Shown here: positions 4,600-60,019 of the stretch, piece after piece
Layout: each line of letters begins with the position of its first letter
Position numbering within the stretch: position 1 is the stretch's first letter
Assembly (NCBI RefSeq): GCF_041146795.1
Contig: NC_135167.1
Coordinates: forward strand, 33,037,954 to 33,101,953
DNA: 64,000 nucleotides
Source of the DNA: Maylandia zebra
Taxonomy: Eukaryota > Chordata > Actinopteri > Cichliformes > Cichlidae
Reading direction: 5' to 3'
Made by a program: the position numbers and the translations under genes
The notes under the pieces: generated by a model
What the model was told of the DNA's origin: nothing
Database searches by the model: none
The model's input: the letters and a program-made list of their open reading frames with translations, nothing else

Positions 4600-5066
4600 T
4601 TAGAGGCTTGTTGCTACCTAGTTAGCGATGCTACACACCTGTTACTGTGTATTTTTCAATGATTCAGCACTCCTTGGATTTTTAGACAGTAATGAGATCA
4701 TGTGCACACTCCACAGAGGTCCAGAGTCCAAATGTGACCTCTAGCACCAAACGCTTGCTGCAGTTCTTGGTGTCAGAGGTGACACATAAGGTATCAGGTT
4801 TCTGTGCGATTACTTTTTCATATAGGACCAAGTATGTTTGGATAGCGTTTTGCCCTTGAAAACTGCCGTTGAATATTAGACATTGTTGTCTAATGTTATA
4901 AATGTATTGATGTGAAAGGTGTAAGTGTGACAAATATGGAATAAGATAGGAAATCAGAAAGGAGGCAAATACTTGTTGACAGGGCTATAGTCTGTAAATG
5001 GTCTTTTGGCTATAGTAGATCTTTTACTTGTTCATTTTTTAATTGTTTGTTTAAAATAGTTTTCTC
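4600..5066. repeat. Segmental duplication, copy 1
   Basis: This stretch, starting ttagaggcttgttgctacc, is nearly identical to 37951-38421, with a few substitutions and small indels. The first copy abuts a filamin exon at 5070; the second does not. It has no coding content of its own, and its sharp ends suggest a copied genomic segment or a repeat of unknown class. Confidence 0.8.
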
Positions 5067-5069
5067 TAG

Positions 5070-5463
5070 GTTAAGGCGTACGGTCCAGGCCTTCAGAGCA
5101 GTGGTCTGGCTGTTGGAAAACCCACTGAGTTCACAGTTGATGCCAAGCAAGGAGGAAAAGCTCCTCTGAAAATTATAGCCCATGAATATCTGGCTTTGTA
5201 TATGATCACAAATATGTTAAATATATTGCATGTACCGTATTTTTCGGATTATGGGTCACACTTAAAATCCTTTTTCTCAATAATCGACAGTGCGCCTACT
5301 TAAATCTGATAGAACTAATCCCTTTTCTTCTGCACAGGATGTTGAAGGTAATTCTGTGGATGTCCAGGTTAAGGATAATGGCAACAGCACCTGCACCTAC
5401 ACCACACGCAAGCCTGTGAAGCACACTGTGATGGTCTCCTGGGGAGACGTTAACATCCCTGAG
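5070..5463 (+). pseudogene. Filamin fragment (two partial exons of one Ig repeat)
   Basis: Filamins are actin cross-linkers built from many immunoglobulin-like repeats. A ctag acceptor precedes codons for VKAYGPGLQSSGLAVGKP and an EFTVDAKQGGKAPL stretch (5070 to about 5177). A second exon after ctgcacag (5338-5463) gives DVEGNSVDVQVKDNGN and a RKPVKHTVMVSWGDVNIP stretch, the signature of an inner filamin repeat. No credible donor follows the first exon, and the second runs straight into a transposon-like sequence (tagggatgggtatcg) with an in-frame stop. The actin-binding domain and all other repeats are absent. Family identity is firm; the paralogue (A, B or C) is not. Confidence 0.85.
5236..5305. 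mobile_element. Miniature-element fragment in the filamin intron
   Basis: The stretch gtaccgtatttttcggatta followed by a cacttaaaatcctttttctc-type segment and cgacagtgcgcc resembles the end of a common fish miniature inverted-repeat element. Only one end is present. Confidence 0.4.
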
Positions 5464-5790
5464 TAGGGATGGGTATCGTTTAGGTTTTATCCGATACCGG
5501 TGCCAAACCGGTACTTTTGAAACGGTGCCGGTGCTTAAACGGTACTCAAACCGGTGCTTAAAGAATGAAGAACACAAACTTTGTCCAAAAACCTCTCGTG
5601 TTCAGCATTGGTCTTACGCCTTTATTTATACCTTCATGGTACATGGTGAAACACACAGATAAAGCAGGAACTTAACTGCACGCCCTTCACTCGTGGGTGG
5701 AGAACATGCAGTTCCAGGAACTTAATCTAACAATAACAGCTGGTTTTCACAACTTATTGTGGTTAATGCTTTGTACGCTATCTATAAATT
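5464..5790. mobile_element. hAT-like element end (truncated)
   Basis: It begins tagggatgggtatcg and continues with ccgataccgg and repeated ccggtactt/ccggtgctt motifs, as in fish hAT-type elements. No matching opposite end is seen nearby. It directly truncates the filamin exon. Confidence 0.45.
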
Positions 5791-29663: not shown

Positions 29664-29701
29664 CTGGACACACAGGAACTCCCTAAGCTCTTTCTTCTTC
29701 G

Positions 29702-32165: not shown

Positions 32166-32218
32166 CCCCTTGTCCGTCAACTGGACACACAGGAACTCCC
32201 TAAGCTCTTTCTTCTTCG
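32166..32218 (-). mobile_element. 54-bp gypsy scrap at the duplication junction
   Basis: This stretch equals 29649-29701, the gypsy end next to the repeat array. It is followed directly by the cut exon 1 of copy 1, which marks the breakpoint of the tandem duplication. Confidence 0.85.
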
Positions 32219-32367
32219 CAGGACGCCTGTCTTTTTCAGGCTCTTCTCCACAAGACGCCTGTCTTTTTCAGGCTCTTCTCCACAGGACGCCTGTCTTTTT
32301 CAGGCTCTTCTCCACAGGACGCCTGTCTTTTTCAGGCTCTTCTCCACAGGACGCCTGTCTTTTTCAG
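32219..32367. repeat. 32-bp tandem repeat, about five units
   Basis: Unit starts at 32219, 32251, 32283, 32315 and 32347. One unit fewer than in copy 1 accounts exactly for the 2517 versus 2485 bp offsets on either side. Confidence 0.95.
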
Positions 32368-34708: not shown

Positions 34709-35426
34709 GCCTGAGATAAAAAGTGAACAAATTGTTTAGAAATAGAAAGTTAGTGAGTGCTGCTCAGTGTGTGAGTGGCAAGTTCTAACTGAGCTGCTCA
34801 GTAAATAACTGTTATGATGTGGAACTCACAGAGCATTTTTTGAAAATATTCATATATATACACTATTTTGTGTTTACAAAAATATCAGACATGTCTAAAT
34901 CAAAGGCAGCTTATGATCTCTAATTATGATCTTTAATCAACAAATTTAAATAGACGTCCTAATCACAGCTTCTAAAACTAGACAACACTATACTGATAAA
35001 TTCATATAAAACAGCAAAAAGGAGATAAAAGCACTGTCATAAATAGAGAAATAAGTACAGTAAATAAATAAATACAGTTTTTAAAAAATATAGAAAAAAA
35101 ACATGTGTCATTTGTTACAACGACAACAAAATAGCAGCTTGGACAAAGCTGTTTCTTCAAGCTTCGCCTGCATTTAGGGGCTGCAAACCTCTGTCCCACA
35201 GGAAGAAGCTGAAATCCTCCAATAAGGGGTGGGAGTCATTTAAAGTAGAGTAACTCATCCTCTACAACTGCCTAGTATTCAAGGACTCTATGTTAAGATG
35301 CTCTAACATGGTACAGTACCTTCAGAAACGCCCCAAATTTCTTACATACTGAAAATTAAATCTCTTCTCAGGAACCTTTTCTCCATTCAGTAGAAGTAGA
35401 TCTAGTATTCATTTTAAAGTTCTAAT
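34709..35426. other. Spacer between TOG copies 2 and 3
   Basis: Sequence upstream of copy 2 is shared with copy 3 up to about 34878. The rest is AT-rich; near 35300-35426 a ttcattttaaagttct motif resembles an L2-type LINE scrap. No promoter could be assigned. Confidence 0.4.
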
Positions 35427-36653
35427 GAAGACAGCAGACTAAAGCTGTGGGACAGGCTCTCTACAGGTGTAGCTACAGGCGGGAGTTTGACCCTGCTCTC
35501 TCTTGGATTATTCTGACTGCACTGACTGTCTGCTTTCTTGTCTGATAATCAACGAGGTTAGTAAAAAGAAACTGTCATTTCTTCTAATTCGAAGCATGAT
35601 GCAGTGATTAATTGTTCATTAAAATCTTTTTAAAAAATCTCTTAATTTAAAGTTTGATTATTCAGCATCTTCTACAGTTACTGAGGAAAACCACTTACTG
35701 TCTATAGGGACGACTTTTGCACGGGGCAGCAGCGTCCCAGGCCGAGGTCCTCGTTTTTGCGGTATGGGAACTGTTGGAGGTTTTGGAGTCAAAATAGGCC
35801 CAAATTTGTCTTTTGCTGTCAAGACTCTTATTCCACGAATGAACTTCGTGTCTGTTTAGACAAAAAATAACTAAATAACTACAAATTGACATCTTACAAA
35901 AACAACAATAAACATTTTTCTTCCTGATTTTTTTTTCTTCAAAAAAGCATATAAAATGAATGGACAGCAAGAATGTGTAATTTAGCATTAAAATAGATAA
36001 TCTACAGTGTCAAATTTTAAAATCTAAACTAACTGATTAACAGCAGGTGTAACCACTAAAGAAAAGCATCACCTTTGAACCGCAATTGCGATGGACAAGC
36101 TGCTCGAGGAGGTGGAGGAACTGGAGTGAGCGGTGTCATCTCAACAGGACTAACAATGAAAGGAATGGCCCTCAGATCACTTGGTGTGTGTGTGTCTGCA
36201 GAGCTGAGGCTACTCAGACTTCTTTCAGGGTCCTCCTGATTCCAAAAGGGGTCATCCAAACAGTTCCAGCTTCTCTGGACTCTCTGTGGAGAGCCTGCGC
36301 ATTGCTCAGGTAAAGGTGGGAGTTGCACAGCATAATCTCTGGGTCTCTGTGCGATATGCAATGTGTCTGCCTGTTGAAAGAACACATTTGTCTTACTGCT
36401 CTGAGCTTTGTGAAAGTCCAGGATCCTGGACTCTGTGGTGAAGCGCTGACAGTTGCTCTGTCTACAGTGACTTACACAAAAATTACACTGTGCAAAGCAG
36501 CAAAATATAACACATCTCTCAGAAACATTTACATTTGATCAGCAGAGAAGTCAAGAATGAGTATGTTTAGTTACTTACATCTCCACCTGTGCGCTTTCTC
36601 TGAATCAAATCTTCAAAGCGATGGAAAAAGTTATTTGATGTCTTTTCAGACAT
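35427..36653 (-). pseudogene. TOG-domain gene, copy 3 (5' exons only)
   Basis: It contains exon 1 (36653-36579), exon 2 (about 36370-36073, missing about 35 bp near its end), exon 3 (about 35860-35700, missing about 80 bp) and the start of the linker exon, where homology stops at 35427. The whole TOG domain is absent. It is more diverged from copies 1 and 2 than they are from each other. Confidence 0.8.
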
Positions 36654-36824
36654 GCCTGAGATAAAAAGTGAACAAATTGTTTAGAAATAGAAAGTTAGTG
36701 AGTGCTGCTCAGTGTGTGAGTGGCAAGTTCTAACTGAGCTGCTCAGTAAATAACTGTTATGATGTGGAACTCACAGAGCATTTTTTGAAAATATTCATAT
36801 ATATACACTATTTTGTGTTTACAT

Positions 36825-37745: not shown

Positions 37746-37950
37746 AATTCCATCCATCCATTCGCTTCCGCTTATCCTTTTCAGGGTCGCGGGGGTCACT
37801 GGAGCCTATCCCAGCTGTCATAGGGCAAGAGGCAGGGTACACCCTGGACAGGTCGCCAGTCTATCGCAGGGCTAACACATAGGGACAGACAACCATTCGC
37901 ACTCACATTCATTTGCACATTCACACCTAGTGACAATTTGGATTATCCAA
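37746..37950 (-). mobile_element. LINE/SINE 3' module (RTE-like)
   Basis: The sequence catccatccattcgcttccg, cgcgggggtcactggagcct and ggtacaccctggacaggtcg is a module common in fish LINE/SINE 3' ends, here reversed with its short tail repeat (ccat)n on the left. The same module recurs at 59903-60006, and a piece on the opposite strand near 46000-46050. Confidence 0.6.
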
Positions 37951-38421
37951 TTAGAGGCTTGTTGCTACCTAGTTAGCGATGCTACACACCTGTTACTGTG
38001 TATTTTTCAATGATTCAGCACTCCTTGGATTTTTAGACAGTAATGAGATCATGTGCACACTCCACAGAGGTCCAGAGTCCAAATGTGACCTCTAGCACCA
38101 AACGCTTGCTGCAGCTGTTGGTGTCAGAGGTGACGCACAAGGTATCAGGTTTTCTGTGTGATTACTTTTTCATATAGGACCAAGTATGTTTGGATAGCGT
38201 TTTGCCCTTGAAAACTGCCGTTGAATATTAGACATTGTTGTCTAATGTTATAAATGTATTGATGTGAAAGGTGTAAGTGTGACAAATATGGAATAAGATA
38301 GGAAATGAGAAAGGAGGCAAATACTTGTTGACAGGGCTATAGTCTGTAAATGGTCTTCTTTTGGCTATAGTAGATCTTTTACTTGTTCCTTTTTTAATTG
38401 TTTGTTAAAATAGTTTTTTCG
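37951..38421. repeat. Segmental duplication, copy 2
   Basis: Near-identical to 4600-5066. Here the sequence beyond the right end is unrelated to the filamin exon. Confidence 0.8.
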
Positions 38422-38864: not shown

Positions 38865-38873
38865 CAGTTGCAG

Positions 38874-39393
38874 CCTCCAAGTTGAACACCATCACCAAAT
38901 CCAACCTGGGTCAGTGTGTCAGCAAGTACGACCTGCTGGTCTGGTTTGAGATCAGCGAGCTGGAGCCCACTGGAGAGTGAGTATCCACCTGGAGTGTTAT
39001 ATTCACGCACAAGCTTTAAAGGAACCATAAAAATGATCTCCAGGAAGAATATTATAAGTTGGGATGTTGTGTCACCTCCTCCCTCCATGCACAGGTACAT
39101 CCCAGCCATCGTGGATCACAGTGGAGGCCTGCCCTGTCATGGTACCTACCTGCTGCACCAGGTACAGGATTGGTGCACATGTTGTTTCCTTATTACTCAC
39201 ACAGTGGTAACTGCTTCCTTTGTACACAGTTGAATATCTTCTTTTAAAGCGTAATGTTGCTCTAGCTGTGCTCACTGTGATCCTGAGCTCCTGTTATGTT
39301 TGCTGCAGGGGATCCAGCGGAGGATCACAGTGACCCTCATCCACGAGAAAGGCAGCGAGCTCCATTGGAAAGATGTTCGTGAGCTGGTTGTAG
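38874..39393 (+). pseudogene. KIF1-type kinesin, exon cluster 1
   Basis: Three well-formed exons (38874-38976, 39095-39161, 39309-39393) encode NTITKSNLGQCVSKYDLLVW, a YIPAIVDHSGGLPCHGTYLL stretch and [20 protein letters not shown] followed by KDVRELVV. This is the central tail of kinesin-3 motors of the KIF1A/1B group, which carry synaptic-vesicle precursors and mitochondria along microtubules. Motor, FHA and the next exons are absent; the following KIF1 exon appears only at 50711. Splice sites are consensus. Paralogue unresolved. Confidence 0.85.
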
Positions 39394-40334
39394 GTGAGCA
39401 GCCTGCCTTTAGGGTCTAGTCGTGCTATACCTCTGTGTAGAAAACAAAACCCCAAAGCACCGAAACAATGTTTTATAGTGTTTGTGTGCTTTTGATAGAG
39501 GAAGACAGGACAGAACATCATTAAAGGGATTTGACTTTGTGAGATCACCCTGAAAACGCACCACTCGGTTCACTCTGAGATATTTTCAGTCTGGAAAGAT
39601 GAATCTGTCGGGCTTCAGGCTGCTTCTCACTTTAAGCAGTTCATGCTGTAGCTGATGGATCAAAAATGACATTTGATATTTTAGACATTCAGCTGCTGAC
39701 TCTGAAGCCAACAGGCTCTTGAGTGTGGATGATTGTGTTGGTACTGGATGCTGTGATCAAACAGCTGTTCTGATCTGTCTTCATTCATGCCTGTTGTTAT
39801 TAAGCCTCCTAAGCTCCAAACCAGTAAAAGCAATCTTTGGAGGCAACACCCTTTTTAGTACTTTGCTGTATTTGTTTGTGATTGTGTGACACTGAACCAC
39901 AGTGCTATGTATATCCTCTGTAACACTCAGACGTTTCCAGATCAGTGTTTCCCCCTCAGCTGTTTCTCACTATAGAGTCTTTCCTCTGTAACAATGAGGC
40001 ACCAGCAGAGCATATCTGGCTCCCAGTCTGTGGCTGATAGTGCCCCCTGCTGTTAATAACAGGAACAGTGTAACCTTGTATGGAGCTCATAGTGATGGTC
40101 TGAAGATTGCTGCTGCAAGGCAGTAATTTGTATCGATGTGTGCTGTCTATTCTGAGCATATGCAGTTATGTGAGCTCTCAGGTTTTATGTATCAGGACAT
40201 AATTAAAAACAATCAGGTCCTTAGTAGGTCTTAATATGAGGTAAATATAAAACATGAAGTGTTTGTGAGGTTCATCTGCAGCACCTTTGTCTTTGTGAAA
40301 TGTTTGCTGATTCAAAATTTTCCCTCCTAAACAG
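39394..40334. other. Unannotated intron-like stretch
   Basis: No further KIF1 exon is visible here, although the family would need one encoding an NTPEADE...SAGYI-type segment. Confidence 0.4.
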
Positions 40335-41749
40335 GAAGGAGTTTGTGGAGGCCTATGTGAATCATGCCTTCAACACATCAGTGGAGAATCTGTTCCAGGA
40401 GTTCAAGCGAGGCTTCTTCCTGGTGTGTGAGCAGGATTTGGTGAGGCTGTTTCGACCAGAGGAGCTGCAGGGAGTGCTGGTCGGCCAGGACGTGCATGAC
40501 TGGGAAAAGTTCAAACAGGTACAGTCAGCCAAACAGACACAGGCTGTAGTTTCACAGCTGTCCTGTAGCACAATAACTGTGTACTGCATACTGTCAAAAG
40601 CATTCAGTCGGCTGCTTTAACACAAATATGAACTTGTGTCACATCTCAGTCTTAATCCAGACTTTTGTATGATAGTATAATATAATAGTCAGCCCACCCT
40701 TCGCAGCTATAACTGCTTCCACTCTTCTGGAAAAGCTTTCCACAAGGTTTAGGTGTGTTTATGGGAATTTTTTGACTATTCTTCCAGAGGTGCATTTGTG
40801 GTGTCAGACACTGACGTTGGAGGAGAAGGCCTGGCTCACAGTTGCTGCTCTAATTCATCCCAAAGATGTTCTATCAGGTTGAGGTCAGGACTCTGTGCAG
40901 GCTAGTCCAGTTCTTCTACACCAAACTCACTCATCCATGTCTTTATGGACCTTGTATTGTGCACTGGTGCCCAGCCATGTGCACACATGCCCACACTTTA
41001 CACTTGGCACAGTGCAGTCAGACAAGTACTTCTGGCAACCACCAAACCCTGACACATCCATCGGATTGCCAGTCAGAGAAGTGTGATTCGTCACTCCAGT
41101 AAACACATCTCCACTGCTTTAGAGTCCAGTGTTGAGATGCTTAAATCACTCCATCTGACGCTTTGCATTGTGTTTGTCAGTGTAAGGCTGGGATGCAGCT
41201 GCTCAGCCATGGAAACCAATGAAGTTTGGACATCTGTAACAACAGCAGACTGCAGATATTGGTGACTTAAGTGCACTATGAGCCTTAGCATCAGCTGACT
41301 AGCTGTCATTTCCAATTACTTCCACTTTGTTATAATATCACTAACAGCTGACTATGGAATATTTAATAGCGAGGAAATTTCATGACTGGACTTGTTGCAC
41401 TGGTGCATCCTATCACATTACCATGCTGGAATTCATTCAGTTCCTGAGAGCGACTCGTCCTTTCACACATGTTTGTAGAAGTAGTCTGCATGCCTAGGTG
41501 CTTGATTTAATACACCTGTGTCCATGGAAGTGATTGGAACACATTAATTGAATGATTTGGATGTGTTAGGGAATACTTTTGGCAACATAGTGTATGCCTG
41601 ACCTTACAAACTCTATGATTATAACAGTCATTTTCACTGTTTTCAGAACACAAGTTATGGTTGGAGATATCATGACCGCCACCCCACCATACAGATGTTT
41701 TGGGAGGTATTTGATGAACTAACTGAAGAGCAGAGGAAAGATTTCCTTC
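40335..41749 (+). pseudogene. HECT-domain ubiquitin ligase fragment (HERC-like)
   Basis: Two exons: 40335-40518 (KEFVEAYVNHAFNTSVENLF then LFRPEELQGVLVGQDVHDW) and 41647-41749 (NTSYGWRYHDRHPTIQMFWE then VFDELTEEQRKDFL). They match the N-lobe/C-lobe boundary of the HECT domain of small HERC-type ligases, which transfer ubiquitin through a catalytic cysteine. The exon with that cysteine and all upstream RCC1/HECT exons are absent. Splice sites are intact. The intron holds a Tc1 relic. Phase allows joining to the next, unrelated LRR exon. Confidence 0.8.
40676..41594 (-). mobile_element. Tc1 transposon relic
   Basis: On the minus strand the right end reads tacactatgttgccaaaagt, the classic end of a fish Tc1 group. 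Inside, degraded transposase pieces are visible: a VYWSSDESHF-like block with the first catalytic aspartate and DLNLIEHLWDEL-like remnants. Several hundred bases of the middle are missing, and stops abound. Confidence 0.8.
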
Positions 41750-41891
41750 GTAAGTACTTGCTGAAGCCTCCATTATGATATGTTACTGAAATCACACTGT
41801 ATCATATAAAACATTAGATTTTTCTGCACTTTACCAAGATACATTAGAGAGCAGCATTGTTCTGATTAATATACTGTAAAGCTGCTTCTAG

Positions 41892-42239
41892 CTGGTGGAC
41901 TGAGCCGCCTCACCTTTCACCTGGCTCACGTCACACACCTGGAGGGACTCGACCTCCACCTGTGTTGCCTCACGCGAGATGATCTAGAGGCTCTGAGTCA
42001 GTTGCTACCAATCTCACACGCCGGACACTAATCGCATGCTCGCTGCAGCAGTCATGTGACTCGTTGTTTTTCAGTCCAGGTGCTGCCCTCTCTCACTGCA
42101 CTGACCGAGCTTGATGTGTCATCCAATAAGGAAGTGGGAGGTGTGGTCCACCTGCTGGTCTCCGCCCTCCCTGCGACACAAATGAGGAGGCTGCCATTCA
42201 ACAGCTGCTACATGAGCAACGAGTCCTTCACTGCTCTGG

Positions 42240-42293
<54 letters not shown>

Positions 42294-43274
42294 TTTATTT
42301 ATAGAAGTTTTCCTTCAAGTCATTCTCCCTGAATACCTCTTCCACCCTCTAGCCTGAAATGGTGAAAACTTTGTGTTTATGCATCAGCCCTGGCGGTGTC
42401 CTATCTGCGCACGGTGGATATTTCCTGGTGTAAAGTGGTTGGCGGTCACTTGGCGCTCCTGCTGGATGCTCTGCAGCCATCAGTCGTCAGCGAGCTCCGT
42501 CTTTGCAGCTGCGAGCTCACCACTGATGACATGCAACATCTGGGTAACTAACACACAATGACATTATACTTTTTCTTTTTTGGTCTGTAGTGGATCATTA
42601 GGCTGCATAAATGTATATTAAGACAAGTAAAGCCTGAAGGAAATTGATATTTCTTTCATTTATTTCATGCTGCCAGCATCTGTAGCTGTCGTATAAAACA
42701 AAACAATGAAACTATTCGGTGTTATTTTTGTCTCCATCAGAAACATTGTGAACAAAACAGTAAAGTGAACAGGCATAAAGTGATCAGTTATCAATGGGTC
42801 CTCTTCCTCTGTGCAGCTGCCGTGTGCAGACGGGGCTGTCTCTCCTCACTCCGTGCACTGGATCTGTCCTACAACAGCTTGGTGGGAGACAACGGTTGGT
42901 GCAGTCTGTTTGCAGCAGGAGGTCTGGGCTCTCTGGAAGACGTGGATGTCAGTTTGCGACCTTCAACCTCTGCTCCGTGCTCAGCCTGGCTGCCCGCTCT
43001 GCTCCGAGCTCTGCCTCAAATTTCGGCGCTGGCTCGACTGGCCATGCAGAGGTGGACAGCTGACTGTCAGGAGAGAGAGCAGCTCAGGTACTGTCTGAAA
43101 AAGAGGAGCGTCCTGCTGGAAAGGGATCCAGATTTACAAGACACATCATCAGCATGTAAAGGGAACAGTCAGGAGAGCCTAGAAGAGAGTCAGCCTGAGG
43201 AGATTGGAGCGGACCGCACTGGAATTTACTGTCAAAGAGCGACCCACTTTGTTGCTTTATTATTATTTTTTTAA
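41892..43274 (+). pseudogene. Leucine-rich-repeat protein 3' exons (LRRC31-like)
   Basis: Exons: 41892 to about 42006, 42080-42239, 42388-42543, 42817-43274. They encode repeats such as VTHLEGLDLHLCCLTRDDLE, LPSLTALTELDVSSN, YLRTVDISWCKVVGGHLALL and LSSLRALDLSYNSLVGDNG, then a C-terminal cap with RWTADCQEREQLRYCLKKR. Exons 2-4 join with correct phases and GT-AG sites. The first exon has a poor donor (cag|ttgcta). Upstream exons and a start are missing. LRRC31 is my best guess for the family. The frame to the stop is open, so a truncated product is conceivable. Confidence 0.65.
42243..42290. repeat. (AC)n microsatellite
   Basis: 48 bp of uninterrupted AC immediately after the donor of an LRR exon. 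Confidence 0.95.
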
Positions 43275-44590
43275 GTCTCTGTTACCACAAGAAGGTCAGT
43301 GTTGAGGTCAGCTGCATCACGTCTGATGTAAACTGTGTCACACGTGATGGTTTCAGGGAATACTGGGAACTTACAGAGTTAAGCACAGCTGGTGTGGGTT
43401 ATCATATTTGTCGTCTCTCACCTTGGCTGCAGGGTCTGGGTCTTTCCAATGCAGCAGTCCTAACACTTGAGACACACATGCCGAGAAGTGGGGATACCTG
43501 GAAATGGACAAAGGCTTTCAGCAGAGTTTTAAAGCAGCTATTCAGGAAAAGAGCTGTGAATTATCTGCATACCTTGTTAGGTAATCAGCTATTTTGGGGT
43601 TCTTTAACAAATCAACCAAAAGGTCGACTGAGTATTTTCTCGTCAGAGTACCTTCACCGTTCACGATGATGTTGAGCACAAGCTGGAGCGTTTGATGGAT
43701 GTTCTTTGCATCAAAGAGCTACGAGGAAATCCCAGAGATTAGAGACAGGATATTATGTGAATCAGCATGAATGTTGTTTGTTGTTCAACAGATAAAAACA
43801 AGAAGAGAAAATAGAAACAAAGTAAAAAAGGAACAATTGTTTCTGCCGTTAAGAAAAAAAAATTGAGTCATGGCAGAGACCTGCAGAAGTCTTGAGTCTC
43901 ATTTGATGACATTTTGTCAGATTGCCTTGTAATTTAAAAAAAACAAAACTGTTTTTTGAGCAAAAGTTCTCCAGGTTTTTTTGGAGTTCTTTCAAAGTTT
44001 TCTTATTTTTGGACATTAGCTGCTTTTTCACTCTTTTTCAGTCCAGTCTGTGCATCTGAACATTTACAGAAAGATTTCTTTGTTTCGTCTTTAGACACTT
44101 TGTTAAACGCAGATCCCAGCAGAGTTCGCCTACCTTCTCTCCAACCTTCTCAGGTTTTGTGGATATTATACATGGTTATGCTGAGAATATGTCGGCTACT
44201 TTCCACTGGAAATGCCTTTTGGTTAAACTGTCAGCGAGGAATTTGCACTGTTACATTTTTATATAACTTTAATGCAAAAAAAACAGCTGCTTGTTTAAGT
44301 GAAAATACACTGATGGGGTTTTTTTCTATTCATGAACAGGAGTGTGATCAGTTTAATAAAAGAAAAAATAACCATAACCAAGATATGAGGGGAAATCTTG
44401 GACAAATACAAGCAGACTGGAGCAGCCAGCGTTCAAAACACCGACGTTCAAGGTAACAGAAGGTTCCCGAGCCACATCCACCCAGCTGGTTTCTGTGTTT
44501 CTTGTGTATTTGTGTACACTGTGACTTCATGGCTGTCTTGGGCTCCAGCTCTTGTTTTGGTGTCTCATTAATTTGATTTAATGTCCTGCT
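43275..44590. other. Unannotated stretch
   Basis: No recognisable gene. Frames of up to 166 residues (43956-44456) lack similarity and codon structure that I can support. Confidence 0.4.
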
Positions 44591-45074
44591 TAGTGATAAC
44601 ATCACTCTTGGCCTCCCTGCACTGGCTTCCAATTGAATTTAGGATTCATTTTAAAGTTCTTTTATTGGTTTTTAAATCTTTAAATGGTCTGGCACCTGCT
44701 GAAGCCCTATGTCCCCACTCGTTCGCTCCGGTCAGCTGAGCAGCTGTTGCTCTCAGTCCCCAAATCACGGCTGAAACTGAGAGGAGACCGAGCGTTCTCT
44801 ATCGTGGCTCCTAAGCTTTGGAATAATCTTCCTCTTCACATTAGGCAATCGACATCAGTGCTGGTTTTTAAATCCAGATTGAAAAAGCATTTTTATTCAC
44901 TGGCTTTTGACTCAGTGGTTGACTGACTTGTATTTTATTGTTTTTCGCTATGTTTATTATTGTATCGTATTTATTATTCTTATGGTATCTATTATGTTTC
45001 TATTGTTCAGCAGTTTGGTCAGCCTTGTGTGTTTTTAAAGTGCTATATAAATAAACAATGATGATGATGATGAA
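44591..45074 (+). mobile_element. L2-like LINE 3' end
   Basis: Translation shows SLHWLPIEFRIHFKVLLLV, FKSLNGLAPA and, one frame over, RSLRSAEQLLLSVPKSRLK, then KLWNNLPLHIR and FKSRLKKHFYSLAF: the C-terminus of L2-type LINE ORF2. It is followed by a 3' UTR ending in gatgatgatgatga, the short tandem tail typical of these elements. One frameshift; severely 5' truncated. Confidence 0.8.
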
Positions 45075-45912
45075 CATAGTAACGTGTGTTGGGTTGCTCT
45101 GTCTTCAGACTCACTGTCAGACTGATTAGACAGTGAGTCTGAAGGTGAGAGTCCTCACTGCCCACGCCTGTCTTTGGGTCTGACCAACACCGTTTCCTGT
45201 GTGTCATTCCCCCCTCGCCTTCCCCCCATCCGTCCTGTCTGCACTGACCTCTCCAATAAAGACAAAAGGCCTCATTTTCTGAAACTCTTCCTATCCCATC
45301 ACCTTGCGAAGAATCACTTCACCATGTTGATTAATAAGGACGGTGGGAATGGTTTGAAGTCTCGTCACAGAAAATGTGCCAAAGGCAAAGAATCTGAGCT
45401 TGAAATAAAATGAAATGAAAGATCAGCCCCACACAGGGGTTAAATTCAGATGGAAACTCTTATCACACAAAGAGAACAAGCGAATAAATATATCTGAGTG
45501 TGGCCCCTCGACTGTCACAGTGTAGCTGACATTTGATCTTATCATGTGTTAAAGCTATTTTAATTACTGAAGAGAACCAGTGTCAAACTCAGCCCAAGTA
45601 TGGTTGTACGTTAATCCTTAAAGCAACAACGTTTTTAAAGTTGCAGCGTCATTTTTACACCACACCTAAAATCCCACTAATCGTCCGGGCTCTTCACCCT
45701 ATGACCACACGCTGGGGTATCTAACACCACATGACCCAAATGGAAACTATGTCAGCTGAAAGAAACCCATCGAAATGTGCAACACTTAAAACTTTGCCTG
45801 ATTGGAGCATGGCTTCAAATACAGCCCTGAAAACAGACAGGCGGTCGTTGGCATTTCGCCCTCGTTCCTGAGAGACTACATCGATGTATCAGTCAACAAA
45901 TGAACTACTGTG
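45075..45912. other. Unannotated stretch
   Basis: No supported feature. A gacagtgagtctgaag motif and its complement occur near 45107-45146 as a small inverted repeat. Confidence 0.4.
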
Positions 45913-45974
45913 GCGTCACAGCTGGGGCCTTCTCTGTGTCGTTTATAACACAGAGAAGGACCCAGCTGTGACGC
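45913..45974. other. 27-bp hairpin
   Basis: Arms 45913-45939 and 45948-45974 (gcgtcacagctgggg... and complement) pair with one mismatch around an 8-base loop. This is an inverted-repeat scar or structural element of unknown origin. Confidence 0.6.
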
Positions 45975-47090
45975 TGAAGTGGTATCTTTAAATTAGCTGT
46001 AGGTGTGAATGCTTGTCTGTCTCTCTGTTAGCTTTGCAACAGACTGGTGATATTCAGAGTGCACCATATGTCTGGTATTATTTCCCTTCCAAATTAGTGC
46101 TTCCTCTTAGTTGCTGGTCTAAATTTGTTTCCTTTCATGTTCAGGCCGTGTTAGTGTTGTCTCTGTGTGTAGCAGGTTTTGTCTCCATGTTTGTTTCACT
46201 GTCTGCCTGTCTGTCTCTGTATTCTGTACTTCTGATAGACGTCTAATTTTGCCAGTCCCTCTTTTTGTGCGCCTTGTACCTTGTCACTCTCTGTGACCGC
46301 GTCTCACTTTGCCAGTTCCCATGTATTTAGTCAGTTAATGGTGGTCTGAGTAACCCTCACCACTTTGTTCTCCAGTGTCTTTGTTCCTGTTCATCCTACA
46401 TATTTTCCCCCATTTGTTATTTATTTCTGCTGTTCGCTATTTATATTTTATTCCTGCACAGTTTGCTTGAAGCACTCATATTTTGTCTATTCTATTCATG
46501 TGGATCTTATCTTTCTATTTCCTTGCTTCCTTTTCTGTTTACTTTGCTTCTTGCCCGTGTTTCGTCCTTTTGCGGTGTCTGTGTTTTTTTAATCCTATGG
46601 TCTCTTTTAAGTTTGTTTGTCTCTTTACTTCTTCAAACTGAATTCAAAGTGGAGCAAATGCTATATAACATTCTCATAGTCTCATTCACACTAACGTTGG
46701 TTCTGTATCTTGTAACCAAAGGAAGCTTCAGCATGCAGACTGGAGCCAGCGATCAAAACACGTGCTTCCTATTTTATTTTGTTGGTTATGTTGAGTTTTG
46801 CTGTAACTGTCTCATTACTCCTGATTTGTCCCTGCCGTCTCCTCTTCCCTAATGACCGTCCTGTGTGTTTATTGTTTAATCTTCTCCTTTCGTCACCCAG
46901 CTTCACTGGTCATGTTTCCTAGTGTTATCCCCCAGTATAGGTTTCTGAGTTTCTCAGTTCCCTGTCAGATATTTCATATCATTCTCTCCGTCCAAAATAA
47001 ACAGGCTGCCTTTAGTTTATCCTTGCCAGCCTGTGAGTCTGCATTTGGGTCTTCTTTTTTCATAACAAATGATCATACTCCCCGCAGATT
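45975..47090. other. Pyrimidine-rich repeat-like stretch
   Basis: Near 46000-46050 gtgtgaatgcttgtctgtct followed by gcaacagactggtg resembles a piece of the RTE-like module seen at 37746. The rest is T/C-rich with no coding signal. An aataaacaggctgcc segment near 47000 recalls an LTR end, but no partner was found. Confidence 0.35.
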
Positions 47091-48700
47091 GTGATAGTGA
47101 CACCTCCAGGCCATGCTGCAACTCTCTGGAGCTTTCCGCTCTTCAGGAACTCTCTCTGCAGGAGGGGGAGATACAGGAGAGGTGGAGGAAGATCTCAGCC
47201 TGGGCGTCTATTGTCTTATGTAGTCTGGAAGATGAGTGGATGGTGGGGTGGGTGCAGTTTTCTCTGTGGTGGGGTTGGGTGGACTGTCCCGGGCTCTGTG
47301 GGGCCGGGAGGCGCTGCTGCACTGGGCCCCGGTCTGGATGGGCCTGGGCCCCCTTTCCCTGGCGGGGCGCGGAGTATGGGGGTGTCACCAGGGTGCAGAG
47401 GAGGCTACCCCCCCTCTGTCCCCTTCTGGCTGCCTCTGCCTCAATTTTATCCCACAACTTAGACATTCACATTACTCACACTCTCATTACACATACATAT
47501 AGGATCTTGGGGGTGGGCACAATACATGGATACATGGATACACGATACATGTACACCCCACCCCTGGTGTCGTTGCCCACCTCTCAATTTTAAATACACG
47601 TAGACATTGAGGGCTATCAGGAGGGACTATGCGCTTACCTGCTGCTCTCTGGCAGGTAGCTCCATGCCCTCCTGGGTTTTAAATGCACCTTAGAACACAC
47701 ATGCATCAACACTACAATGAGCGGGTTGAGGGAGGTTTGGAGTCTTCTCTCACCCCCATTCTCTGCGGCCTGCTGGAGCGGGGGGGCTAGGAGGAGGAGT
47801 TGGCCGTCCGACTGCGGTCTGGAGTCTGGGGCCTCCCTGCTGCTGCGGAGTTGGGGTGGTCTGCCTCTCCCCACCGCAGGGAAAAGGGTAACACCACCTG
47901 GGTCTGGGTGCAGTTCCCCCTCCAGGGGCAAGGGTACCTAGACCCGGTTTGTAGAGTACGCTTGGGGAGTGTGATCGTGTGTACAGCGTCTCTTTATGTC
48001 TGTCTCCACGTTGGTTGAGTGTGGAGTAAGTACATATGAGAGCATGAGGGTGGGAATGGATGTTTGTGTCTGTGTGTGCCTGTATGTCTGTGTCTATATG
48101 TCAGGTTGGGTATCAGACGCCACCTCTCTGGGGACATCTCAGGCCCTCCAAGGTTTGGAGGCCTATCTCCCCCTACCACCACTTCCCCTGCCAGTGGCGG
48201 ACTCCCTCAGACATCGGTGCGTTGGTGGTTCTTTGTGTCCGGGGATGCGCGTCCAGGTACACACCGGCTCACTCCTTGGCGGCCGCTTATCGGGGCCTGG
48301 AGCCTGGGGCTCGCTCGGGCCACTTCGGAGGTGGGGGTGCCCCCGGCCTCTCGGCCTGGGGCTCGGTCACTCAGGCACGGCTGGCTGCCGGCGGAGCTCA
48401 CGGGCGCGTCACTGCAACTCCCCCTGGCTTCTGCTCCGCGGCTGCTGAGTGAGCCCTCATCTGGGACTCTCCTCAGCTCTTTCTGGGACAGTGGCGCGGC
48501 TGCCCCTCTGTTGGTCTTCCTTGGTCTGTTGTGTTCTGGGGGCCTCTGGATGTCTGGAGTTTTGATCTCCTCCATACCTGCTTCATGCCCTGGAGGACGG
48601 GGCTGTGGCCCCCCCACACCCTCTAGCAGATCATTACATGAAGGAACCTTTTTAAAAAACAAGCGCGTCCATGCTCACAGGTGCTCACACACACAAACTT
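47091..48700. repeat. GC-rich low-complexity repeat block of unknown class
   Basis: About 1.6 kb much richer in G+C than its surroundings, with long overlapping frames on both strands (up to 226 residues), all Gly/Pro/Leu/Ser-rich and without domains. Its composition and motifs such as ctggggcctggg-type words resemble GC-rich interspersed repeats common in cichlids. I regard none of the frames as genes. Confidence 0.45.
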
Positions 48701-48933
48701 CACCCTTTTTGGCTCCTACCTCAAAGCACACTGTGTTCTGTTGATCTTATGTGCTGCACAATAATGTTTAATATTTAGTATTTACTGTCATATTCCCATA
48801 TATCATTGTGATGTTGTTTATTCTATTACTCTTGTTCTCTTCTGCTTGTTTTCTTTTTTCTTTCTCAGCAGGTGACCCAGGTGATTGATATATGCATTTT
48901 TTTTCTTTTTTTTTTCTATGGTTTTGTGTCCAG

Positions 48934-49738
48934 ATATCAGCGCTCACCTGGCTGGTACCAAGAAGGTTCAGCAAGTGCTCCCCAGACCTGGAGTCCTGGA
49001 CAGATTCTTCCCAGACCAGCCTCAAGCTGTGCAGCAGATCCGAGCGACATTGGCTGACCTCTACACTCTAGACATGGTGAGAAAAAGGGCACGGTTTTTT
49101 CATTGTTTGGAAAATTTGGCATTAGATAATCCTCACCTGGGTGTTGCTGTTCAGTGTAAGCAATATCATTTGCATTTTATTCCTCTGATTTATTTCTCTG
49201 TGGCGTTTATGAACTCGTATTTCTTAGGCTGGCTTTTAAGGAAGGAGAAAAGGTATGTATCAGTTGGCTGGGAAGAAAGATGGAGGTGGAAAGGATGTGC
49301 AAGCTATGGGACAAAGTTGCTGAGACTAGGTTAAAAAGAGGTGAGGATCAGTGAGCAGGAGTGTGGCTTTGTGTTGAAAAGAGCACAACAGATTGTCTGG
49401 AGAGAAGGTGAAGGAAAGTCAGCTGAAGCAAGACAGTTTGTGGAGTTTGTGTTGGACTGTATGTTATGCTGGGAGCCTGGGGATTAGTGCACTTTGATTC
49501 CAAGTTAATACTAACTAGTGTTTCTCACTGGTTTTTGGGTGGTGGAGTAAAAGGGATTGGTTGGTGGCTGTTTCTAATGTTAGCCTTTTCTTGGTTTTCT
49601 TACAGGCAGGGTAAAGACATGGTGATGAATGAGTGTGTGGGCAGACGCTGAGGACCAAGAGCTCAGGACAGTCAGACGGGGGCGTCGCAGCAGGAGTCAC
49701 CGTGCTCGACAACCCTCTGCTGTCCTGAGATGTCAGAC
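48934..49738 (+). pseudogene. gss: Glutathione synthetase fragment
   Basis: Glutathione synthetase joins gamma-glutamylcysteine and glycine using ATP in the cytosol. One internal exon (48934-49076) encodes [20 protein letters not shown] then [17 protein letters not shown]. The terminal exon (49606-49738) encodes QGKDMVMNECVGR, then after a one-base deletion near 49648 LRTKSSGQSDGGVAAGVTVL and DNPLLS before a stop. Exons for the ATP-grasp core that should lie between these two, and all 5' exons, are missing. Splice sites are good. The deletion introduces an early stop (VGRR*). Family identity is strong. Confidence 0.85.
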
Positions 49739-50710
49739 TCCTGCCTGCACATACAAACCACACTGAAGTCAAAGTTCCACCTGCACCTCCACCTGTTCTT
49801 GCAACAGCATGAAAACTGACAGAGGTGAGACAGAAGAAAAGTTCTTGTCTATTTTATTTTTTTTTTTACTAAGTTAAGGAATTAAGTTAAGAAGAGTGAT
49901 TAAATAAATAGTTTCTTGCATTTTTGATTTAATGATTGTGTTTAGGATTATTTCAGAAACATGTTTAGAGGATCTTTGTAAGCCTGTATTTACTTTAAAA
50001 GAAGGGAAGCACTTCTTCATCCTACAGAAAAGGTGACACATTACAGATGAGTTCATAAAAAGTGTCTCTGTCACTCTTTCAAGGCTCTGTCACTTTTTCT
50101 TTTGTACTGGAACAGCATGGTAAAGTAGGCCTAGGCTGACATCTTGTGGCAGTGTGTTGTTACTACAACATATGAAATTGTGTTTCTATTGGAAATATAA
50201 TTCAGCGCCACTGAGCCGCTCTCTCAGTTACAAACTGAACCTGTTTTGTAGACGTATAAATCACTAAGTACAGTGAAGCTTTTGGTTTTGTAAAAGTGTT
50301 TCTTATTCTAAATGCATGTTGATTTTTATCAGGGTGAAGAGCAGTTAGCAGTGCATTCATGGACATCTTTAAACTATTAATTGAAGAATCTTTGGTGATG
50401 ATGGCATGAACTAGAAGCGTGAGCTCCAGGTGAGACTGCACAGAAGAACAAGTGTCCTTAAACTGCATCAACTGATGACGTCTTACAATTTTATTCCACT
50501 GTGTGTTTTTATCATTGAATGTTTCTGTCTTTGTGTACATGTAATGCAGACACTAAAGCTGAGCCAGAACTTCATGCTGAAGAGAAGGATTCTTTTAAAA
50601 TGCATGGGGGAGCAAGCGAGTCAGATACCAAGGGCACAAAGATGAAGCAGGTCTGATCGGAAACCGTTTATTTCCAGGCCAGGGAGCACAAATAAAAACA
50701 CCCTTAAAAG
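49739..50710. other. Unannotated stretch
   Basis: No exon was recognised. Just before 50711, where a KIF1 exon normally has its 5' part, the sequence is unrelated. Confidence 0.4.
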
Positions 50711-52893
50711 GTTCCCTCCTGCTCAACCGCGTCACTCCCTACGGAGAGAAGATCTACATGACCTTATCTGCGTATCTGGAGGTCAGCCGCTGCTCCGCCG
50801 TGTTGTACCTGTTTGTACGTGTTTTTAAGTCTCTTGATGTCATCGTGTCTAACACACACCCTTTATCTCCTCTCTGCAGCTGGACCATTGCATCCAGCCT
50901 GCCATTATCACCAAAGACATCTGCATGGTCTTTTACTCCCGAGACGCCAAGATTTCCCCACCCCGTTCTCTCAAGAACCTCTTTGGGACTGGATACTCCA
51001 AAACTCCTGACTGGTAACTGCACTGTGGCCATCTCTGTTTCACAATCAAAGATATCTGCCCTGTTACAAAGTTTCCTTGTTCAAAACTTCTGCTTCATTA
51101 TAACAACCGAGTGACTGGGATCTACGAGCTGAGCTTGTGTAAGATGTCTGACACTGGAAGCTCAGGTGAGCGGCCATGAAACATGTTTAAAGAACGGCAG
51201 CTGTTTTATCATAATTCTGTGGAGAGCTTCATCCTAATGAGGGCTCATGTCCTGAGCAGGGATGCAGAGGAGGAGGAGGAAGGTCCTGGACACATCAGTG
51301 GCTTATGTGCGTGGAGAGGAGAACCTGGCCGGCTGGAGGCCCAGAGGAGATAGCCTCATCCTAGAGCACCAGTGGGAGCTGGAGAAGATGGAGCAGCTGC
51401 AGGGGGTGGGGCCTTAAAAGATTCATAAAGAAATAAATCTGTTTAATATCGTAGAGGGAAAAATGACTTTTCAACTCAAAGACCAAAGTGCTATTCTAAA
51501 AAGTTTTTTCTTAGAGTACAGACGTTACATGACTAACCTCCCCTCTTCTCCCCACCTCACATTCGCCCCCATCTTTCGTCCAGGTGGAAAAGACCCGTCA
51601 CCTTCTGGGAGAGGCGGCTCCCGTGGGAACAGCTCCCACCACCAAGTCCCTGAGTGAGTCTCTGTCCCCCAGCGTGAGCTCCGGCACTCTGTCCACGTCC
51701 ACCTCCGTCTCCTCGCAGATCTCCAGCACCACCTTTGAAAGCGTGAGAAGGAGCTGGCCACCAAGGTGAGAAAAACGTGGGCTTAGTGGGCGTTCTTGTT
51801 GCTGCCTTCTTCCTTCTCTGCTCGGAGCTGATCGGTCTTGTTCCTGTTGTGTTGTAGTGCCTGCGCCTTCTGACACACACCTTCAATACTGAATACAAGC
51901 AGCTGGTGAACAGCATCAGTGACTGCAAGGTGAGAAATAATATAAGGTGAAGAAATGCGACCAGGGTGAGTAATGCCATATTAACCCAAATACTGTCACT
52001 ATGACATGTGTCTCACAGACCAAATGTAAGTCGACACTCATGTTCTCTAGTTCAAGCAGAAGTGATGTGGATCGATTCAAATTCCTGAGCCTGGATGATT
52101 TCAGCTGGAAACAAACCAACTCTGCTTCTTCCTCAGAAAAACAAGCGCTCTCTTAAAAAATAAATAAATGAATAAAATCTCTTCTTTTCAGATCTGTTGT
52201 GTCCAAGAAGGGTTTTCTAAGCTTCGTGGAGCCTCGCTCTAACTCATGGGGGAAGCATTTTGTGGTTGTTCGCCGGCCCTACGACTTCATCTACAACAGC
52301 GACCAGGACCCCGTGGAGCGAGGCGTCCTCAACCTCTCCACAGCTCAGGTGGAATACAGCGAAGACCAGCAGGCCATGCTTAAGGTTTGAGGCAGGATAG
52401 AGAAAGGCTGGATGTAACACGTTTGTCTTTTAATGAGAATTCATTCAAATTGTTTTGGTGCACGTTGATTGATGAAATGGCAAATGGACTGGGATTTATC
52501 ATTTGAATGAATATGAATATAATGTGATGTTTTCTTTTCAGACGCCCAACACATTTGCAGTGTGCACAAAACATGGAGGCATCCTCCTGCTGGCCAACAA
52601 CGAGAACGACATGAACGACTGGCTGTACGCTTTTAATCCTCTGCGAGCAGGAACGATAAGGTACACACACACAGACACACACGCTCCTCTCACACCACAG
52701 TCAAACGTGCAGCTTCTGCACCCTTCAAAAACATTCCCTTCTCCTCACAACGTAAAAATCTCCCTGCAGATCTAAGCTGGCGAGGCGGCGCAGCCTTCCT
52801 CCAGCAACCCCGCTGCCAGCTCAGCTTTCCTCCTCTCCATTCCCTCCCCTCAGCTTTTTGTGTTTTTGTTTCGATGACAATGTTTGGGTCTAA
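50711..52893 (+). pseudogene. KIF1-type kinesin, exon cluster 2 with C-terminal PH domain
   Basis: Exons: about 50711-50781 (LLLNRVTPYGEKIYMTLSAY), 50880-51013 ([20 protein letters not shown]), about 51102-51165, 51260-51402 ([20 protein letters not shown]), 51584-51765, 51858-51929 (CLRLLTHTFNTEYKQL), 52192-52384 and 52542-52660 (PH domain: [48 protein letters not shown]), 52770-52893 ending FDDNVWV. The PH domain of KIF1 motors binds phosphoinositides on cargo. Defects: the exon at 51584 has lost the segment between TTFES and REKELATK with a frame change, and splicing 51929 to 52192 is out of phase because the intervening exon is missing. AATAAA lies at 53090. Confidence 0.85.
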
Positions 52894-53863: not shown

Positions 53864-55203
53864 TTACAAGCGGGACAGACCATCAGCTAAAACATTTTCA
53901 GACCCCTTCTTATGGTGAATACTTAAGTTGTATTCCTGCAACAACAGAGCCCAGCGCATAAGGCGCTGGTTATGATTAAACATGCGAGTAAGGAACACAA
54001 GTGGGTTGTGGTCGGTGTACACAACAAGAGGTAACATGCTGGACCCCAGGTATACGTGAAAGTGCTGAAGAGCCAACAACAAAGTCAGGGTCTCCTTTTC
54101 AATGGTGGAGTAGTTTAACTGATTTTTATTGAACTTGCGGGAAAAGTAACAAACGGGGTGGTTCAAACCCTGCAAGTCTTCTTGCAACAGCACTGCCCCA
54201 GCCCCGACAGCACTGGCATCAACCTCCAGTTTGAATGGTCGTGTCAAATCAGGTGCAGCTAACACAGGAGTGTGGCAGAGGAGGGCTTTCGCACTCTCAA
54301 AAGCATCTTGACACTCACTTGACCATATAAACTCAACTTTTGGGCTGAGTAGGTCAGTCAATGGCTTGACTGCTGAGGAGAAATTTTTACAAAGGTTTCT
54401 GTAGTAGCCCACCATCCCTAGAAACCTACGCAACTCACGCCTGGTGGTAGGTGTGGGAAACTCTTTAATCACTGCCACTTTGGCATCTATGGGCCGGACC
54501 TGTCCACGTCCCACCTCCCTGCCTAAGTACATCACTATAGCTTTGGCAAACTCACACTTAGCTAAGTTGAGAGTTAGAGTAGCTTGAGCCAAACGGTGAA
54601 ATACCTGCTGTAACGTTTCCAAATGATCTTGCCATGTTTCAGTATAAATTACTAGATCATCTACGTAGGCACTGCAGTTGGACAGGCCACGGAGGACTTT
54701 ATTTACCAGCCTCTGGAAGGTGGCAGGAGCGTTACACATGCTGAAAGCCATGACTGCGTATTGTAGAAAATCATCAGGTGTAACAAAGGCAGAGATGTTA
54801 GAGGCACGTTCAGTTAAAGGGACCTGCCAGTAACCATTAAGAAGATCTAATTTAGTGACATACTGAGCAGTCCAATACTGTCCACACAATCCTCAACTCT
54901 TGGGAGAGGATGTGAGTCAGCCACAGTCACAGAGTTCACCTTCCGGAAGTCTGTAATAAAACGGGGTGAGCCATCTGGCTTAGATTCCACTATACAAGGC
55001 GAGCTCCAGGGGCTTTGACTGGGCTTCGCTAAGCCATGTTGCAGCAGATAGTCAGCCTCCTGTTTCATGAGCAAGCGCTTATGGGGGCTGGCTCGATAAG
55101 GATGCTGCTTAATAGGTTTAGCTCCCTGGACATCAATATCATGCTCTAGCACCGTAGTGCAAGTTGGCACATCCCCGAATAAACAGGTGTATTCCTTAAT
55201 CAA
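53864..55203 (-). pseudogene. Ty3/gypsy reverse transcriptase-RNase H, frameshifted, integrase missing
   Basis: Frame 55203-54847 gives HPYRASPHKRLLMKQEADYL and SPWSSPCIVESKPDGSPRF; frame 54889-53864 continues with YVTKLDLLNGYWQVPLT, CNAPATFQRLVN, SAYVDDLVIYT (catalytic YVDD), FLGMVGYYR and the RNase H segment EVDASAVGAGAVLLQE, ending ENVLADGLSRL. One indel near 54880 separates the frames. Integrase, which normally follows, is absent: only about 80 bp lies between the stop and the polypurine tract. Gag, protease and the 5' LTR are also absent. Confidence 0.85.
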
Positions 55204-57673: not shown

Positions 57674-57745
57674 GGGCTCGTCCAGGATTTGAACCCGGGA
57701 CCTCTCACACCCAAAGTGAGAATCATACCCCTAGACCAACGAGCC
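57674..57745 (-). tRNA. tRNA-Pro(UGG)
   Basis: 72 nt. Acceptor ggctcgt pairs fully with acgagcc, discriminator C. The anticodon stem ctcac/gtgag encloses tttgggt with anticodon TGG. The T-arm is ccggg-ttcaaat-cctgg, with one G-T pair. Relative to the usual Pro sequence the anticodon stem carries a paired (compensatory) A-T in place of a G-C. All arms fold, but no run of four T follows within about 80 bases, so transcription termination would be inefficient. Confidence 0.85.
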
Positions 57746-60006: not shown

Positions 60007-60019
60007 GAAACACTTTGTT

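What the first reader, a model, noticed from the sequence alone, without database searches (positions are those of the whole stretch)
38874..52893. Mosaic of incomplete exons from unrelated genes on one strand
Within 14 kb lie well-spliced but incomplete pieces of a KIF1 kinesin, a HECT ligase, an LRR protein and glutathione synthetase; a filamin piece lies at 5070. Exons are missing from each, so whole-gene insertion into introns does not explain it. Such collections of copied gene pieces are known from fish B chromosomes and from sex-limited or heterochromatic regions.
Basis: partly seen in the sequence, partly recalled or inferred. Interest (0 to 1): 0.75.

Follow-up and report, generated by a model that had tools for sequence, protein, structure and literature searches.

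The report
Three-gene chimera in duplicated cichlid DNA
In this stretch of cichlid-fish DNA, pieces of several unrelated genes have been copied next to each other, and three of them (a motor protein, a ubiquitin ligase and a leucine-rich-repeat protein) can be read as one new joined gene whose joins also turn up in other African cichlids.

Summary
The window has no gaps. On the + strand it holds incomplete, intron-bearing pieces of KIF1B, a HERC6-like HECT ligase and LRRC31, one recognised exon of glutathione synthetase, and (at 5 kb) filamin.

The pieces are not all random debris. KIF1B, HERC6 and LRRC31 exons at 38868-43274 can be read as one frame, open for 493 codons over nine exons and eight GT-AG introns. 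Database proteins of other African cichlids have the same joins: Maylandia zebra (KIF1B+HECT+LRRC31, and a 41-sequence cluster of HECT+LRRC31), Astatotilapia calliptera (HECT+LRRC31) and Simochromis diagramma (KIF1B spliced into the HERC exon). Pelmatolapia mariae has a filamin-KIF1B fusion, perhaps an earlier stage.

I read this as a mosaic segmental duplication carrying a chimeric gene family, comparable to primate core duplicons. Assembly error and retroposition are unlikely. The distal KIF1B half is broken. At the KIF1B-HERC join the frame stays open only with alternative splice sites.

A B-chromosome or sex-limited location is not shown; related copies are annotated on long contigs of two lengths in A. 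calliptera. Nucleotide copy number, expression and selection could not be tested. No library paper holds both LRRC31 and cichlid.

The parts
5070..5466 (+). Filamin fragment: two exons of one immunoglobulin-like repeat, isolated
   Evidence: Pfam filamin 3.3e-17; best match residues 200-280 of 6ew1/4m9p filamin-A
4600..5063 (+). Repeat R1, copy 1: directly upstream of the filamin exon, probably filamin intron (inferred)
   Evidence: 97.4% identical over 468 columns to 37951-38417; ends six bases before the filamin exon
37951..38417 (+). Repeat R1, copy 2: upstream of the KIF1B block; inferred trace of a filamin-KIF1B join
   Evidence: filamin-KIF1B fusion P0012 of Pelmatolapia mariae
38868..39389 (+). 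KIF1B exons (38868-38976, 39095-39161, 39309-39389): first part of the chimeric frame; the parental-type donor is at 39393/39394
   Evidence: Pfam DUF3694; splice sites and frame; match to P0113, P0114, P0121
40282..41749 (+). HERC6-like HECT exons (40282-40518, 41647-41749) with an intron between them; no C-terminal part of the HECT domain
   Evidence: Pfam HECT positions 139-235 of 306; 95% and 78% identity to Haplochromis burtoni HERC6 P0235
41892..43274 (+). LRRC31 exons (41892-41996, 42075-42239, 42388-42543, 42817-43274 with stop); the first is cut in mid-exon and used with a new 3' splice site in P0121, skipped in P0123, P0129, P0148 and P0196
   Evidence: 98% and 99% identity to P0121 and P0123
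38868..43274 (+). Chimeric KIF1B-HERC6-LRRC31 frame: nine exons, eight GT-AG introns, 493 codons open to the stop (first base of the first codon assumed)
   Evidence: same joins in P0121; other splice choice in P0114
48935..49075 (+). One recognised exon of glutathione synthetase
   Evidence: Pfam 5.6e-10; human enzyme chain 2hgs residues 296-343
50706..52890 (+). Distal KIF1B half up to the PH domain and stop; broken by a truncated first exon, internal deletions, lost exons and a frameshift near 51748
   Evidence: Pfam PH 5.3e-12; alignment with P0004 (Arapaima) and P0012

Best explanation
This is a mosaic segmental duplication in an African cichlid: pieces of filamin, KIF1B, HERC6, LRRC31 and glutathione synthetase were copied as genomic DNA with introns, joined at breakpoints that cut introns and exons, and recopied as a joined block.

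Within it, KIF1B, HERC6 and LRRC31 exons make a chimeric gene. Its predicted product is a short kinesin-derived lead, a HECT fragment without the C-terminal part, and the C-terminal part of the LRRC31 leucine-rich-repeat solenoid. The rest of the block is decaying.

Shown here: the pieces, the splice sites, the open frame, and the same joins in proteins of other cichlids. Inferred: that the copies arose by DNA-level duplication and end joining or template switching in a repeat-rich region, that the block spread between chromosomes, and that the chimera is transcribed. If it makes a protein, the likeliest useful part is the leucine-rich-repeat half, without ligase activity.
For: AG and GT borders at all eight introns and a frame of 494 codons with a single, terminal stop. 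M. zebra P0121 (436 aa) contains KIF1B, HECT and LRRC31 parts in the same order with the same joins. By exact-word match, five of the 243 proteins on file combine the HERC and LRRC31 pieces: P0121, P0123, P0129, P0148, P0196. P0123 stands for 41 member sequences, P0129 for 8. Simochromis P0114 ends in the eight residues that the window gives when KIF1B is spliced to the HERC exon (39392 to 40334, the same letters as the GT-AG splice 39393/40335). P0129 and P0196 begin with MFYQVE, encoded at window 40866 between the two HERC exons and followed by GT, so intron sequence is shared too. At residue 176 of the 401-aa frame all 5 chimeras and the window have A, while the 8 other cichlid LRRC31 proteins that I aligned have V (14 of the 114 proteins put in; P0172 left out there as it is out of frame). 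P. mariae P0012 joins a filamin repeat to KIF1B and shares two KIF1B residues with the window that otherwise occur in 0 of 19 and 0 of 40 scorable proteins among the 120 listed. Local duplication is seen directly: R1 97.4%, TOG unit 99.7% over 2440 columns.
Against: With the parental-type KIF1B donor the frame stops eight residues into the HERC exon, and P0114 ends exactly so; the long frame needs the alternative donor at 39389 and acceptor at 40282, as in P0121. No nucleotide sequence of any other copy could be read, so the extent and copy number of the block are unknown. The 41 members may include several species and isoforms. The database chimeras look like gene predictions, not proven transcripts. 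No cichlid parental protein for the distal KIF1B half was identified in the list, so the residues shared with P. mariae could be ordinary cichlid KIF1B residues. No vehicle or breakpoint signature was found.
Confidence: 0.78

Rival explanations
1. The window comes from a B chromosome or a sex-limited, non-recombining region that collects copied gene pieces.
For: Lake Malawi B chromosomes carry sequence blocks from every A chromosome, overlapping 516 to 2030 genes and gene fragments per dataset, 132 of them common to at least 12 of 13 datasets (PMC6316868, Discussion read). The window holds retroelement frames and recent local duplications.
Against: LRRC31-derived copies are listed on contigs of 35.9 and 41.4 Mb in A. 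calliptera and 45.6 Mb in M. zebra. The main text of PMC6316868 names none of KIF1, LRRC31, HERC, filamin, kinesin or glutathione; its gene lists are in supplements I could not read. A filamin-KIF1B fusion is also present in Pelmatolapia.
Confidence: 0.12
2. A mobile element that captures gene fragments (Helitron or Pack-type DNA transposon) carries the mosaic.
For: Same-strand, intron-bearing fragments of several genes are the classic look of Helitron capture (recalled). Some of the joins are multi-copy by the protein clusters. A repeat of about 100 bp at 37749-37851 recurs in the same orientation at 59906-60007 (91%), outside the block on both sides, though it looks like an ordinary short dispersed repeat.
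Against: A simple scan for Helitron 3' ends (perfect 7-11 base stem followed by CTRR-T) found 0 on either strand, and no match linked the flanks 36.8-38.9 kb and 49-56.5 kb. No inverted pair of 60 nt or more with a 14-base seed; the self-BLAST shows an imperfect 62-column palindrome at 45913-45974 and an inverted 52-base pair at 22232/23050, neither bracketing the block. No dedicated helicase search was made; none of the frames given to Pfam matched one.
Confidence: 0.08
3. An assembly or annotation artefact: unrelated contigs joined in error.
For: Near-identical tandem copies lie nearby, where misjoins happen.
Against: The same joins occur in database proteins from M. zebra, A. calliptera and S. 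diagramma, and the frame crosses the joins with proper splice sites.
Confidence: 0.02

Closest known systems
Primate segmental duplications with core duplicons (e.g. lcr16a/NPIP)
   Same: Duplicated genomic segments organised around shared cores, interspersed spread, repeats at breakpoints (passages of PMC9132208); gene pieces joined into new transcripts (recalled)
   Different: Fish lineage and different genes. Here the centre would be a KIF1B-HERC6-LRRC31 chimera. Spread is inferred from proteins, not mapped.
Cichlid B chromosomes (Lake Malawi; Astatotilapia latifasciata)
   Same: Many partial genomic copies of A-chromosome genes (PMC6316868: abstract, part 1 of section 3, sections 3.4 and 4 read)
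   Different: No evidence of B linkage here. Related copies are on long contigs of two lengths. The kinesin named on the A. latifasciata B is KIF11, not KIF1B (passage of PMC6409846).
Helitron gene-fragment capture
   Same: Several unrelated exon-intron fragments on one strand (recalled)
   Different: No Helitron 3' end found in a simple scan and no matching flanks

Membership tests
Segmental duplication | Duplicated genomic DNA over 1 kb, typically over 90% identical (definition from a passage of PMC9132208) | tested here: inconclusive
   Met for the TOG-domain unit inside the window (2440 columns, 99.7%) and by identity but not length for R1 (468 columns, 97.4%). For the KIF1B-HERC-LRRC31 block only proteins of other copies could be compared: 98% and 99% identity of the LRRC31 piece to P0121 and P0123.
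Segmental duplication | Genomic copy with introns, not a processed copy | tested here: met
   Eight GT-AG introns
Mosaic (core-duplicon-like) block | Pieces from unrelated loci in one block, with recurrent joins in several copies | tested here: met
   HERC-LRRC31 join in P0121, P0123, P0129, P0148 and P0196; KIF1B-HERC join in P0121 and P0114
Mosaic (core-duplicon-like) block | Interspersed copies on several chromosomes | tested here: inconclusive
   Contigs of 35.9 and 41.4 Mb in A. calliptera. P0172 on the shorter one is an LRRC31 copy, not shown to have the HERC part.
Cichlid B chromosome | Raised read depth in B-carrying individuals, or FISH to the B | not testable with these tools
   No reads or cytogenetics on hand; own genome unreachable
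Helitron capture | 5' TC and 3' hairpin plus CTRR ends inserted between A and T (recalled) | tested here: inconclusive
   0 hits in a simple scan of both strands for the 3' end only, perfect stems of 7-11 bases; degenerate ends could be missed
Processed pseudogene / retrogene | Loss of introns | tested here: not met
   Introns kept in the KIF1B, HERC and LRRC31 pieces
Active HECT E3 ligase | Complete HECT domain | tested here: not met
   Only profile positions 139-235 of 306; P0235 spans 6-304. That the catalytic cysteine lies in the missing C-terminal part is recalled.

The most novel reading that the evidence does not exclude
The KIF1B-HERC6-LRRC31 chimera is a new, expressed gene family of haplochromine cichlids, amplified to dozens of loci within a few million years, whose frame is kept open by selection (for example as a decoy for LRRC31/HERC6 functions, or as a selfish amplified gene), while the rest of its duplicon decays.
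Probability: 0.15. Interest if true: 0.82.

Novelty: new member of a known kind. Interest (0 to 1): 0.55.

Why it matters
If confirmed, African cichlids have their own version of the core-duplicon process known from apes: exons of unrelated genes joined by duplication and amplified as a chimeric gene in a fast-radiating group. It gives defined probes (the KIF1B-HERC6 and HERC6-LRRC31 joins) to count copies, map them to A, B and sex chromosomes, and test expression. It also warns that some cichlid genes annotated as LRRC31 or KIF1B are chimeras.

Tried and rejected
Rejected: whole-gene insertion into an intron (each piece lacks exons, and the LRRC31 piece starts in mid-exon); retroposition (introns kept); hidden gaps (0 N). 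A Helitron vehicle is unsupported (0 hits in a simple scan) but not excluded. No solved-structure match for the distal KIF1B PH piece or for the TOG piece. Rfam at gathering threshold found one tRNA. The AlphaFold model of P0121 is confident only for the leucine-rich-repeat part: ten-residue blocks from 121 to 390 score 67-96, all blocks before that under 50, which covers the kinesin part and most of the HECT part. It says nothing about function. The neutral-decay simulation used assumed substitution and indel rates: at 1% change the frame stays open in 10-27% of runs, at 2% in 1.6-6.7%. As the true divergence is unknown, this is no test of selection.

Literature: LRRC31 with cichlid, 0 papers; cichlid with KIF1B, one paper, on zebrafish sarcopenia. 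Other searches were seen only as listings of titles and abstract starts, and some in part: 20 of 24; 3 of 3; 4 of 4; 10 of 19; 8 of 17; 15 of 57; 10 of 35; 9 of 9. Nothing on this chimera was seen there; the unlisted papers were not seen. Valente et al. 2014 on the A. latifasciata B (recalled) is not held.
Full report
What is in the window. The window is a gapless piece (0 N in 64000 bases) of a fish genome with several retroelement frames: a LINE frame open over 1183 codons at 17304-20855, and reverse transcriptase with RNase H at 53867-54892. Its LRRC31 piece is closest to proteins of African cichlids, above all Maylandia zebra and Astatotilapia calliptera. The exact species was not determined.

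Check of the observation. Pfam recognises each piece: kinesin DUF3694 and PH, HECT, leucine-rich repeats, glutathione synthetase and filamin. Each is incomplete. The HECT piece covers profile positions 139-235 of 306 and the GSS piece 196-234 of 363. LRRC31 starts in mid-exon: a few coding-like bases continue upstream of 41892 (KLLLAGG in the window, NKLLAGG in P0122) and then the match stops (my reading). KIF1B lacks the exons between ELVVG and SLLLNRV. All five are on the plus strand. A sixth fragment, with a TOG domain (CLASP_N 7.3e-9), is on the minus strand in tandem copies.

The chimeric frame. With GT-AG splice sites, KIF1B exons 38868-38976, 39095-39161 and 39309-39389, HERC6-like exons 40282-40518 and 41647-41749, and LRRC31 exons 41892-41996, 42075-42239, 42388-42543 and 42817-43274 give 1482 nt, including one assumed base from an unknown upstream exon. 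They read as 493 codons and a terminal stop. A 401-residue product could start at the ATG at 40300. Exon 41892-41996 can be used or skipped without losing the frame. A caution: with the parental-type KIF1B donor (39393) spliced to the HERC exon at 40335, the frame stops after GRSLWRPM (which joined 39392 to 40334, the same letters). The long frame needs the alternative donor at 39389 and acceptor at 40282.

The same joins elsewhere. By exact-word match, five of the 243 proteins on file combine the HERC and LRRC31 pieces: P0121, P0123, P0129, P0148 (M. zebra) and P0196 (A. calliptera). P0121 begins with the KIF1B exon, joined with the alternative sites as in the long frame. It uses exon 41892-41996, and the other four skip it. 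P0123 represents 41 member sequences and P0129 eight; how many loci and species these are is not known. A search with the HERC part of P0121 listed 13 proteins: four of the same chimeras (P0121, P0148, P0123, P0129) and nine HERC-type proteins, none with a new partner by its listed domains. Simochromis P0114 ends with ELVVGRSLWRPM, the early-stop form that the window predicts with the parental donor. P0129 and P0196 start with MFYQVE, encoded at 40866 between the two HERC exons and followed by GT, so intron sequence is shared as well. In the LRRC31 part, all five chimeras and the window share A at residue 176, where the eight other cichlid LRRC31 proteins that I aligned have V (14 of 114 listed proteins aligned, P0172 out of frame there).

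An earlier stage. Pelmatolapia mariae P0012 is a filamin repeat joined to KIF1B. Its filamin part matches residues 88-165 of the filamin-A structure 4m9p. The window's filamin piece matches residues 200-280 of the same chain, the next repeat. In the window the same 0.47-kb sequence, R1, stands directly before the filamin exon and before the KIF1B block (97.4% identity). The simplest reading is that R1 is filamin intron and marks an old filamin-KIF1B join; this is inference. P0012 and the window also share two KIF1B residues that none of the other scorable listed proteins has (P0012 is one of 20 and one of 41 scorable, of 120 listed). No cichlid parental sequence was identified for that part, so this point is weak.

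Decay of the rest. Compared with Arapaima P0004, the distal KIF1B half (50706-52890) begins inside an exon, has a six-residue gap after HL, lacks 20 residues and loses the frame near 51748, and lacks the exons between DCK and SVVSKKG. Some small differences could be ordinary cichlid changes, since Arapaima is a distant comparator; the frameshift is not. GSS is one recognised exon. An open 5' part beside a broken 3' part is suggestive, but the simulation shows that at 1% neutral change an open frame is not remarkable.

Mechanism. Introns and ordered exons show copying of genomic DNA. Joins inside exons (LRRC31, distal KIF1B) show breakage and joining without regard to gene structure. The same joins in several species show that the joined block was copied or inherited as a unit. 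I infer duplication by end joining or template switching in repeat-rich DNA, as for mosaic segmental duplications. No vehicle was found; a short repeat of about 100 bp lies outside the block on both sides (37749-37851 and 59906-60007, 91%) and an imperfect palindrome lies at 45913-45974, neither with a known role. The model of P0121 shows a confident leucine-rich-repeat solenoid and a poorly predicted N-terminal part. The product lacks the C-terminal part of the HECT domain, so ligase activity is unlikely.

Location. A B-chromosome or sex-limited origin is possible but unsupported. A. calliptera proteins are listed on contigs of 35.9 Mb (P0172, an LRRC31 copy) and 41.4 Mb (P0196, a HERC-LRRC31 chimera), and a M. 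zebra chimera on a 45.6-Mb contig (P0123). Lake Malawi B chromosomes do carry many A-derived gene fragments, and the authors note that fragments may be part of gene fusions on the B (PMC6316868; abstract, part 1 of section 3, and sections 3.4 and 4 read). Its gene lists are in supplements I could not read.

Verdict. It is a new member of a known kind. Copy number, expression, splice choice and selection are open.

Noticed in passing
window 29649-36823 (-): A TOG-domain gene fragment (TOGARAM/crescerin-like by recall) in two near-complete and one partial tandem copies, 2485-bp spacing, 99.7% identical. One copy has a one-base frameshift, another internal deletions. It runs into a retrotransposon-like reading frame through a 32-bp tandem repeat.
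   Followed up: partly
P0205 (Oreochromis aureus): Another LRRC31 chimera, with an AMP-binding domain in front: LRRC31 pieces occur in a different fusion in another cichlid.
   Followed up: partly
window 17304-20855 (-): A LINE reading frame open over 1183 codons, from endonuclease through reverse transcriptase to zf-RVT; possibly recently active.
   Followed up: no
window 57674-57745 (-): A tRNA-Pro (TGG) gene.
   Followed up: no
window 61211-61606 (+): A 131-codon frame ending in a stop, with a small exon candidate upstream; no Pfam match.
   Followed up: partly
window 43200-43274 (+): LRRC31 proteins such as P0122 end at QPEE, while the window, P0121 and P0123 continue with IGADRTGIY... (P0129 and P0148 with a shorter form), probably a derived mark of the chimera family.
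   Followed up: partly
window 45913-45974: An imperfect 62-column palindrome between the LRRC31 and GSS pieces.
   Followed up: no
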